Source: Acidobacteriaceae bacterium
Lineage (GTDB): Bacteria > Acidobacteriota > Terriglobia > Terriglobales > Acidobacteriaceae
Reading direction: 5' to 3'
Assembly (NCBI GenBank): GCA_027452245.1
Contig: DAIDGW010000043.1
Coordinates: 1 to 54,362 of the forward strand
Length of the DNA stretch: 54,362 nucleotides
The position numbers and the translations under genes are program-made. The notes beneath the pieces were generated by a model. The model had not been told where the DNA came from, made no database searches, and saw only the letters and a program-made list of their open reading frames with translations. Shown here in pieces: positions 1,879 to 24,848 of the stretch (its first letter is position 1; every line of letters begins with the position of its first letter).

Positions 1879-1976
1879 GGAAGCGCATGCGGTCCGGTGA
1901 TCGTCCCGGTCTTCAAAACCGGCGGGTGGCAGGCAATCCTGTCACCGGTGGGTTCGACCCCCACTCGCTTCCGCCA
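1879..1976 (+). tRNA. selC: tRNA-Sec (anticodon UCA)
   Basis: A 98-base tRNA with encoded CCA, far longer than a canonical tRNA. The acceptor stem GGAAGCG pairs with CGCTTCC, followed by G73 and CCA. The anticodon loop reads CTTCAAA (anticodon TCA) on a CCGGT/ACCGG stem. A long variable arm follows, then a T arm with GTGGG-TTCGACC-CCCAC. The 5' GGAAG, the TCA anticodon and the GGTTCGA block resemble bacterial selC closely. This tRNA is charged with serine, converted to selenocysteine by SelA and delivered by SelB at UGA codons with a SECIS element. No selA, selB or TGA-interrupted reading frame was found here, so its client proteins lie elsewhere. Confidence 0.93.
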
Positions 1977-5198: not shown

Positions 5199-5915
5199 AT
5201 GTGGGGGATGAGGGTAAGAGAACGTGGCCTGTGTGGCGCAATACTGATTCTGGGGATCGTCGCTCAGGTCCACGCGCAGGGAAGGATTGATCCTTCCCTG
5301 CCGCCCTCTCCTGTGACCTTCACTCGCACGCTGCTTCTGTTTCCTGGGGTCGACACGGTAAAGGACCCGAACGCCGTACTACCCCCGCTTACCACTCGCC
5401 AGAAATTCTGGCTCTTCCGCCGCAGAACCTTCGATTATTCGCTTCCGATAGAAGCTGTAATGTTTGGCGGAGCGTCCCAATCGATCAATTACAGCCCGCA
5501 CTACGGGACGGGGCCCGATGCCTTTGGCAAGCGCGTCGCCTCCTACGCCGGCAGCATTGCGAGCAGCAGTTTTTTTACCGACGCGCTTCTGCCTTCCATG
5601 ATGCATCAGGACCCGCGCTATTTCCGTAAGGGACGCGGCTCATTCTTTTCCCGGGTCTTCTATGCGATTGAGTCGGAAGCTGTGACTCGAAGCGACTCCG
5701 GGAACATGACTTTCAACAGTTCCGGACTTCTGGGGTTTGGAATGTCGACGGCACTGAGCAACGCCTGGTATCCGCGCAGCAGCATCACTTTCTCAAGCAC
5801 GATGGAACGATACGGAATCAAGCTCGGAATCAGCGCTGCGCTGAACATCATGCGCGAGTTCGGGGGAACCCGCGAGAGCGAATCCATCCACATTGAACCG
5901 CCCCATACACAATAA
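5199..5915 (+). CDS. Exported hypothetical protein of acidobacterial type
   Basis: A 238-residue protein with an N-terminal signal peptide ending AQVHAQ. The recognisable body is PLTTRQKFWLFRRRTFD, YGTGPDAFGKRVASYAGSIASSSFFTDALLPSMMHQDPRYFRKGRGSFFSRVFYAI, and a final part with alternating hydrophobic residues. This layout recurs in secreted or outer-membrane-associated proteins of acidobacteria, with no known activity. Two starts are possible, ATG at 5199 or ATG at 5208 (MRVRERG); both follow G-rich sequence. It stands between divergent and convergent neighbours and seems to be a single-gene unit. No catalytic motif is visible. Confidence 0.7.
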   Translation: MWGMRVRERGLCGAILILGIVAQVHAQGRIDPSLPPSPVTFTRTLLLFPGVDTVKDPNAVLPPLTTRQKFWLFRRRTFDYSLPIEAVMFGGASQSINYSPHYGTGPDAFGKRVASYAGSIASSSFFTDALLPSMMHQDPRYFRKGRGSFFSRVFYAIESEAVTRSDSGNMTFNSSGLLGFGMSTALSNAWYPRSSITFSSTMERYGIKLGISAALNIMREFGGTRESESIHIEPPHTQ

Positions 5916-24125: not shown

Positions 24126-24131
24126 TATAAT
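24126..24131 (+). promoter_or_regulatory. -10 box of the RNase P RNA gene
   Basis: A perfect TATAAT nine bases before the first base of helix P1, the right distance for transcription to start at 24141. No good TTGACA is present 17 bases further up, so the -35 contact is weak or absent. Confidence 0.6.
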
Positions 24132-24140
24132 TTCAAAGTA

Positions 24141-24689
24141 GGCAGCTGGACCGGACGGTCGCCCCGCCCATTCAGTAGGTTACGGTCAAGTTCCAACGCG
24201 ACTTACGGAATGGGCGGGGAGGAAAGTCCGAACTCCGCAGAGCAGTGTGCCGGATAACGTCCGGGAGCGGGTGGCTCATTCTAAATTTCGCTTGCGAAAT
24301 TTGGCGTGGGGTATTCCGCGACGGAAAGTGCCACAGAAAATATACCGCCCCGCTCATCCTGGCGGGATTCGCTCCACATGAGTGACTCTCGCGAGAATGG
24401 GCGGGGTAAGGGTGAAAAGGTGCGGTAAGAGCGCACCGCCGCCACAGTAATGTTGCGGGCAGGGCAAACCCCACACGGAGCAAGACCAAATAGGGAGGAA
24501 GTCCCGCCCATTCTGGCGCGAGCGACGTTGCATAGCCGCTCCCACGAGAATGGGCGGGACACGTGCCGGCTCGGTGCGTCAAACCTCCGGGTAGGTCGCT
24601 AGAGCCGCGCAGCAATGCGCAGCCCAGAGGAATGGCCGTCCCGTAGGAGCAATCCCGCGGACAGAATTCGGCTTACAGGTCCGGCTGCC
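24141..24689 (+). ncRNA. rnpB: RNase P RNA (class A), enlarged
   Basis: Catalytic RNA of RNase P, which trims 5' leaders from pre-tRNAs. The ends 24141-24152 and 24678-24689 form a 12-bp P1. All core blocks are present: GAGGAAAGTCCGAACTCC (24219-24236), GGTGAAAAGGTGCGGTAAG with GCGCACCG (about 24411-24438), AAACCCCACACGGAGCAAG followed by ACCAAATAGG (about 24466-24494), and GACAGAATTCGGCTTA near the 3' end. At 549 bases it is much longer than the usual 350-400. The extra length sits in peripheral helices built on one repeated arm: CCCCGCCCATTC (24162-24173) with GAATGGGCGGGG (24208-24219); 24348-24359 with 24395-24406 (one mismatch); and GTCCCGCCCATTCT (24501-24514) with 24547-24560. By order these are P3, P12 and the P15-P17 arm. 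Confidence 0.95.
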
Positions 24690-24848
24690 ACAAGCTATCC
24701 TATTTTCAGTCGCTTAGAAAATTGCCCCCTTTGATTGTCACGCCAGCGTGAGCTCTGCAACCGACCGCCTTCGTATGCGGTCTCTTCGCGGTACGATGGC
24801 AACCGCGATTCGAGAAGAAATCCCGACTTCAGAAATGATGGTGCATTC

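What the first reader, a model, noticed from the sequence alone, without database searches (positions are those of the whole stretch)
24141..24689. RNase P RNA in which three peripheral helices share the same inserted arm
Seen: three inverted-repeat pairs in one RNA use the same core, CCCGCCCATTC with GAATGGGCGGG (24162-24173/24208-24219, 24348-24359/24395-24406, 24501-24514/24547-24560). The second pair differs by a few bases but keeps most pairing. The RNA is 549 bases instead of about 350-400. Known: class A core blocks are all present, and by order the arms fall in P3, P12 and the P15-P17 arm. Inference: one sequence has spread inside the gene, by gene conversion or by a short mobile hairpin, while the catalytic core stayed intact. 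Six mutually complementary segments also raise a misfolding problem the cell must solve, or they allow alternative folds. I know of no described case.
Basis: partly seen in the sequence, partly recalled or inferred. Interest (0 to 1): 0.78.

Follow-up and report, generated by a model that had tools for sequence, protein, structure and literature searches.

The report
Copied hairpins in RNase P RNA
In some soil acidobacteria the RNA enzyme that trims transfer RNAs has grown long hairpins on up to three of its outer helices, all built on the same 11-letter stem, and in one relative a whole hairpin appears to have been copied from one helix to another inside the same gene.

Summary
The window carries a full-length class A RNase P RNA gene (24143-24691, 284 bits) whose P3, P12 and P16/17-junction arms share CCCGCCCATTC/GAATGGGCGGG. 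The genus is Candidatus Sulfotelmatobacter. Twelve of 39 genus genomes with a detected rnpB carry such arms at one to three of these sites; most others have short hairpins there. Searches of 45 genus genomes with exact hairpin patterns and a covariance model found the arm only in rnpB; a looser pattern added a weak look-alike in one 23S rRNA. So it is not a dispersed repeat. In genome G013 the P3 and P12 arms match at 88 of 96 columns while relatives keep different arms at the two sites: one arm copied inside the gene. The inner stem drifts with compensatory changes; the outer 11 pairs are nearly frozen (1 double change in 297 cells). Interiors of nine inserts in six relatives match dispersed repeats: hairpins nested in hairpins. 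Best reading: palindromic arms spread among rnpB helices by intragenic copying and are tolerated like rRNA intervening sequences. The copying mechanism and the frozen core are unexplained. Misfolding is not predicted.

The parts
24143..24691 (+). class A RNase P RNA gene (rnpB)
   Evidence: RF00010, 284.3 bits, full model 1-367
24162..24219 (+). P3 arm, CCCCGCCCATTC/GAATGGGCGGGG; interior of the second subtype (TTC..CGGAA type)
   Evidence: R1 57.9 bits (this arm is in the model)
24348..24406 (+). P12 arm, CCCCGCTCATCC/GAATGGGCGGGG; interior like the P12 arms of G030, G008 and G005
   Evidence: R1 59.3 bits (this arm is in the model)
24501..24560 (+). arm in the P16/P17 junction (P16.1-like), GTCCCGCCCATTCT/AGAATGGGCGGGAC
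   Evidence: R1 64.5 bits (this arm is in the model)
24262..24322 (+). lengthened P10 arm (P9-P11 stretch 100 nt against 67 in most relatives); its 5' strand carries CTCATTCT
24126..24131 (+). TATAAT, likely -10 box of rnpB; the same box stands at a like distance in many relatives (read by eye, not counted)
   Evidence: sequence

Best explanation
This is a working-looking class A RNase P RNA in which one palindromic arm has been copied between peripheral helices of the same gene. Shown: (1) the P3, P12 and P16/P17-junction arms share an 11-bp outer stem; (2) in this genus the arm was found only in rnpB, apart from a weak look-alike in one 23S rRNA; (3) in genome G013 the P12 arm is a near copy of the P3 arm; (4) the changes seen in the arms are those that keep an RNA helix; (5) some relatives' arms hold genome-dispersed repeats inside. 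Inferred: copying works by template switching or gene conversion between neighbouring hairpins of the gene, which would explain why it stays inside rnpB and why whole distal stems are replaced rather than inserted into loops. Also inferred: the RNA tolerates the arms as rRNA tolerates intervening sequences, possibly with trimming by RNase III. The near-frozen outer 11 bp are not explained by copying alone and suggest either recognition of that sequence or that it serves as the homology used for exchange.
For: Full-model match. Arms in 12 of 39 genus genomes with detected rnpB (39 of 45; arms; G044 was not fetched and the rnpB of G015, G018, G024 and G029 is incomplete). Confinement: the pattern CCCATTCTGGN{10,40}GAGAATGGG has 7 matches in 45 genomes, all in rnpB; all R1 matches at E<=1 in 45 genomes lie at rnpB loci of 12 genomes; in 73 sources (839 kb) R1 at E<=5 finds only rnpB and the 23S look-alike. 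Intragenic copy: G013 P3 against P12 88 of 96 columns, while G008 P3 resembles G013 P3 and G008 P12 resembles G030 P12; G013 groups with G030 in the rnpB-core tree (99/86) and G008 with G030 in the rpoB tree (97/96; G013 is not in that tree). Cross-site likeness also between G001b P3 and G005 P12 (score 16 against a shuffled maximum of 9) and between G000 P16 and G039 P12 (14 against 11). RNA helix: in 13 of 27 arms the inner 8 pairs all show changes on both sides; over the whole 19-pair structure, which was predicted on the same alignment, 93.9% of cells pair against 36-52% when partners are slid. In 27 arms 13 of 15 one-sided core changes keep pairing, with 11 C>T on the 5' strand against 1 G>A on the 3' strand (related rows). 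Nesting: 9 of 53 inserts match an 825-kb sample of three genomes at E<=0.01.
Against: Only one recent copy event is clear-cut, and it rests on one draft contig. For the window's own P3 arm no other arm's interior scores above the shuffled maximum. Copying within a gene predicts that the outer stem would differ between lineages, yet 281 of 297 cells are unchanged, also in G001b and G016, which keep a single arm of this kind. The Peribacteraceae rnpB arms and the 23S look-alike fit a mobile element better. In neither tree do the arm-bearing rows form one clade: the label needs 3 changes in the rpoB tree and 5 in the weakly resolved rnpB-core tree. The genus-wide model search used strict filters: it did not list the 23S look-alike that the same model scores at 34.5 bits, so weak dispersed relatives could have been missed. 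A relaxed half-arm search gave 283 matches against 122 for the reversed control and was not pursued. No junction signature was proved. All genomes are drafts; G001 and G025 hold two rnpB loci each.
Confidence: 0.52

Rival explanations
1. A mobile palindromic element (intervening-sequence-like) inserts at tips of hairpins of structured RNAs; the shared 11-mer is its terminal inverted repeat, kept by the recognition needs of an unknown enzyme. Copies elsewhere are lost because only RNA hairpins tolerate them.
For: Outer 11 bp nearly frozen while the interior drifts; a look-alike in a 23S hairpin of G030 where G023 and G017 have short helices; a Peribacteraceae rnpB with two such arms and a third copy elsewhere in that genome; dispersed repeats nested in some arms.
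Against: No dispersed copy seen in 45 genus genomes or in 839 kb. The 23S look-alike is weak: 34.5 bits, E 7.9e-4 in 839 kb, and the looser pattern that found it gave 5 non-rnpB places against 10 for the reversed control. At P3 and P12 the filled sites read as replacement of the distal stem, with no remnant of the short stem on either side (by eye). No enzyme was searched for.
Confidence: 0.25
2. The arms are a functional module: a protein or RNA binds the 11-bp stem, and up to three copies are kept by selection.
For: Sequence conservation beyond pairing; pairing kept in the transcribed sense.
Against: Arms come and go between relatives: all three sites in 4 of 12 genomes, one site in some, short remnants at P3 in G007, G042 and G030. 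27 of the 39 genus genomes with detected rnpB show none (some of these rnpB are incomplete). No partner known.
Confidence: 0.13
3. Convergence or artefact: GC-rich peripheral stems that look alike by chance, or misassembly.
For: Draft genomes; two of 1000 shuffles reached 4-5 copies of an 11-mer; short words up to 12 nt are shared in one rnpB without the arm (G058).
Against: Separate assemblies of 12 genomes share the arms; shared words are at most 9 nt in 36 of 37 rnpB rows without the arm; covariation of the inner stem.
Confidence: 0.03

Closest known systems
Intervening sequences (IVS) of bacterial 23S rRNA, e.g. Coxiella burnetii helix 45 (PMC4990558; abstract and passages read)
   Same: Extra sequence with complementary ends at a peripheral helix of an essential RNA; G030 has an arm of similar design in its 23S rRNA, at the place I take from recall to be helix 45.
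   Different: Here the RNA is RNase P RNA, three sites share one arm, the window's inserts are 56-57 nt (too short for an S23p-like ORF), and RNase III excision is untested.
STRR repeats in RNase P RNA of heterocystous cyanobacteria (Vioque 1997; only the title seen, in a reference list; paper not held)
   Different: By its title those are short tandem repeats; here palindromic arms at three separate helices, not found elsewhere in the genome.
REP/BIME and Rickettsia palindromic elements (recalled; one search gave a listing only)
   Same: Palindromic units; interiors of some relatives' arms match genome-dispersed repeats.
   Different: The outer arm itself is not dispersed.

Membership tests
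Bacterial RNase P RNA, class A | full-length match to the RF00010 model above the gathering score | tested here: met
   284.3 bits against 100, positions 1-367
rRNA-type intervening sequence (IVS) | sits at the distal part of a peripheral helix, with complementary ends | tested here: met
   predicted fold
rRNA-type intervening sequence (IVS) | excised by RNase III without rejoining, leaving a fragmented RNA | not testable with these tools
   no RNA data
rRNA-type intervening sequence (IVS) | lies in rRNA | tested here: not met
   in rnpB; a weak look-alike in the 23S rRNA of G030
STRR-type RNase P repeat | short direct repeats in tandem | tested here: not met
   copies 187 and 153 nt apart, in inverted pairs; the tandem-repeat finder was not run
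Dispersed palindromic element (REP/RPE type) | many copies across the genome | tested here: not met
   own genome: 5 of 10 exact 11-mer sites are in rnpB, the other 5 have no exact partner in their 3-kb loci; genus searches, and 839 kb
Gene-converted or template-switched repeat | two sites in one genome more alike than either is to its counterpart in relatives | tested here: met
   G013 P3/P12 only; not seen among the three arms of the window's own genome

The most novel reading that the evidence does not exclude
A hairpin parasite specialised on structured RNA genes: a palindrome with an 11-bp recognition stem that copies itself from helix to helix within RNase P RNA and occasionally into 23S rRNA, found in at least two phyla (Acidobacteriota and Peribacteria), collecting other repeats in its interior and lengthening one RNase P RNA to about 830 nt.
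Probability: 0.12. Interest if true: 0.85.

Novelty: new variant of a known kind. Interest (0 to 1): 0.6.

Why it matters
How extra sequence enters essential structured RNAs and spreads there is poorly understood. Here one genus gives sites with and without the arm, partial losses, nested repeats and one readable copy event inside a single gene, so the order of steps can be followed. It also gives RNase P RNAs (473 to 832 nt in 11 arm-bearing genus rows) that reach beyond the 250-550 nt stated in a paper that scanned 2772 genomes (PMC7191817, passages read), and a simple test of how much peripheral change the ribozyme tolerates.

Tried and rejected
Dispersed mobile hairpin in the own genome: rejected; five further exact 11-mer sites lack an exact partner in the fetched loci. 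Relaxed half-arm search (2 mismatches): 283 matches against 122 for the reversed control; the excess was not pursued, because the list was cut and pairing was not tested. A second arm family (CGCTGYCGCTSTSARYGCTTGT, up to 3 mismatches) gave no more matches than its control; within one mismatch it occurs only in rnpB of G001, G016 and G030. The degenerate pattern CCGCYCNTTYN{25,55}RAANGRGCGG gave five non-rnpB places against 10 for the reversed control: the contexts of three (G044, G015 and one of G037) were printed and look alike, the second of G037 was not looked at, and the fifth is the 23S one. Of 34 sites of the 13-mer GAGAATGGGCGGG in 45 genomes 19 are in rnpB; of the other 15, 14 were checked and have no partner within 200 nt upstream, G005:C266 was not fetched. 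Misfolding between arms: not predicted. Three hairpin-repeat patterns tried on the 825-kb sample found no hairpin copies of two of them and scattered single words of the others. Of the 14 stretches found by an exact scan of the genome collection, 7 are rnpB of this genus, one lies in a Peribacteraceae rnpB and six were not explained (contexts and open frames). A paper on insertions in rRNA genes of CPR bacteria (PMC11270868) was searched for RNase P, rnpB, Peribacter, palindrom and H45: no occurrence. In one search one row (G008 P3) was cut one base out of register; one search corrects it. G008 and G015 were skipped by the segmenter; G008 was added by hand, G015 left out (run of N). 23S places were found in only 5 of 45 genus genomes, and none in the window's own, so the 23S comparison is thin.

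Full report
What is there. The window holds one class A RNase P RNA gene at 24143-24691. P10 is also lengthened (100 nt against 67 in most relatives for the P9-P11 stretch). The genome has 6.23 Mb in 274 contigs; five of the genus records found by an exact scan are titled Candidatus Sulfotelmatobacter or, in one further case, Acidobacteriaceae bacterium SbA1 (one search lists six Sulfotelmatobacter records and one SbA1 among the rnpB hits).

Relatives. Of 101 genomes searched, 90 have an rnpB match; in the genus 39 of 45. I fetched 60 regions and read the segments; G044 was not fetched, and the rnpB of G015, G018, G024 and G029 is incomplete. In most genus members P3, P12 and the junction hairpin are short; G002, G019 and G031 have one longer arm of another kind. 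In 12 genomes (G000, G001, G005, G007, G008, G009, G013, G016, G025, G030, G039, G042) one to three of the sites carry the arm: all three in G000, G005, G009 and G025. G007, G042 and G030 keep short P3 stems that look like collapsed arms (by eye). None of 28 rnpB loci from other genera matches the arm model R1. G001 has two rnpB loci, one with and one without the arm, and two rpoB places; G025 has two rnpB loci, both with arms. The rpoB tree of 20 genomes puts six of eight arm-bearing rows in one fork (67/89, weak); G000 falls just outside it, and the rpoB copy used for G001, which may belong to either strain, groups with rows without the arm; the label needs three changes. The rnpB-core tree of 49 rows is poorly resolved and needs five.

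Confined to rnpB. The 11-mer occurs ten times in the own genome, five of them in rnpB; the other five have no exact partner in their 3-kb loci. The hairpin pattern has 7 matches in 45 genomes, all in rnpB. A covariance model of 13 arms finds only rnpB loci at E<=1 in 45 genomes, with strict filters, which also missed the 23S arm below; and in 839 kb of fetched sequence only rnpB and that 23S arm at E<=5. The 23S arm, CCGCCCTTTCTGG..CGAGAAAGAGCGG, sits between positions 1218 and 1219 of RF02541 in G030, which I take from recall to be helix 45; G023 and G017 have short helices there. Its score is weak (34.5 bits, E 7.9e-4 in 839 kb), and the pattern that found it gave five non-rnpB places against 10 for its control, so its weight lies in its place, not in its likeness. 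Helix 45 is where Coxiella's IVS lies.

Spread inside the gene. In G013 the P3 and P12 arms match at 88 of 96 columns. G008 has a P3 arm of the same kind and a P12 arm like that of G030. The simplest account is that the P3 arm of a common ancestor overwrote P12 on the G013 line. Interiors also cross sites between genomes: G001b P3 is nearest to G005 P12 (score 16, shuffled maximum 9) and G000 P16 to G039 P12 (14 against 11), whereas G000 P3 has no match above the shuffled maximum. Other arms persist at their site: the junction arms of G005, G009 and G025 are 82-89% alike in aligned interior columns and match the other arms of the same genes no better than shuffled sequence. Apart from its own second copy, the G025 P12 interior aligns best with the reverse complement of the G013 arm (score 18 against shuffled maxima of 7 to 13), which hints at inversion.

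Two layers of constraint. In 13 of the 27 arms the inner eight pairs all show changes on both sides, whereas the outer eleven show none (structure predicted on the same alignment). Over all 27 arms the outer stem has 1 double change in 297 cells; 13 of 15 one-sided changes keep a pair, and C>T on the 5' strand outnumbers G>A on the 3' strand 11 to 1 (rows are related, so not independent). That asymmetry is expected if the transcript must fold. As a control, short P3 stems in 18 distinct sequences show both-side changes at 4 of 10 pairs. Arms were recognised by their core, which favours conserved cores somewhat. Copying within a gene does not by itself keep the outer stem the same between species; this is the weakest point of my reading.

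Nested repeats. Of 53 long inserts (47 from the genus, 6 from other genera), 9, in G001, G008, G013, G016, G030 and G039, match an 825-kb sample of G000, G007 and G030 at E<=0.01, best E from 1e-3 to 7.5e-36. The G030 junction arm interior matches nine places over 107-131 nt at 75-89% identity. None of the window's four inserts does. The longest gene, in G016, is about 832 nt by my anchors; Rfam's own match there spans 755 nt.

Outside the phylum. An exact pattern scan of the collection of 84,980 species genomes found 14 stretches: seven rnpB of this genus and one at the 3' end of a Peribacteraceae rnpB (69.6 bits, below the gathering score), whose P3 arm is CCCCGCTCATTCT..GAGAATGAGCGGGG. That genome has another copy elsewhere (L201). 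The other hits are unexplained. Whether this is common descent, transfer or convergence is open.

Fold. The predicted fold of the 549-nt RNA is -280.2 kcal/mol (z -10.0), with all three arms local and expected pairs between arms that round to zero.

Literature. Ten searches of the open-access library gave in their listings no paper on repeated arms of this kind in RNase P RNA; STRR in cyanobacteria was seen only as a title.

Noticed in passing
window 1879-1972 +: Selenocysteine tRNA gene (RF01852, 68.8 bits), so the organism probably makes selenoproteins.
   Followed up: no
L055 (G016:C370): RNase P RNA gene of about 832 nt, with the arm in P3 and long arms of a second family in P12 and P16 that match dispersed repeats.
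   Followed up: partly
L193 5801-6350: Peribacteraceae rnpB below the Rfam gathering score, with CCCGC(C/T)CATTCT arms in P3 and near the 3' end, and a CCCGCCGAAGCC..GAAGGCGGG hairpin whose like also lies upstream at 5599.
   Followed up: partly
L206, L212, L221, L224 (G103): In another acidobacterium, CCCGCCC(A/T)TTC hairpins sit inside repeats of the TCATCCTGAGCG type: palindromes nested in palindromes (by eye).
   Followed up: partly
L041 and L042 (G001); L061 and L079 (G025): Two different rnpB loci in one assembly; in G001 one with and one without arms, with two rpoB places too, pointing to a mixed bin.
   Followed up: partly
window 24262-24322; L043, L050, L055, L073: P10 arms of several genus members share GTGGC(C/T)CAT(T/C)CT or close to it, a fourth peripheral helix with a related motif (by eye).
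   Followed up: partly
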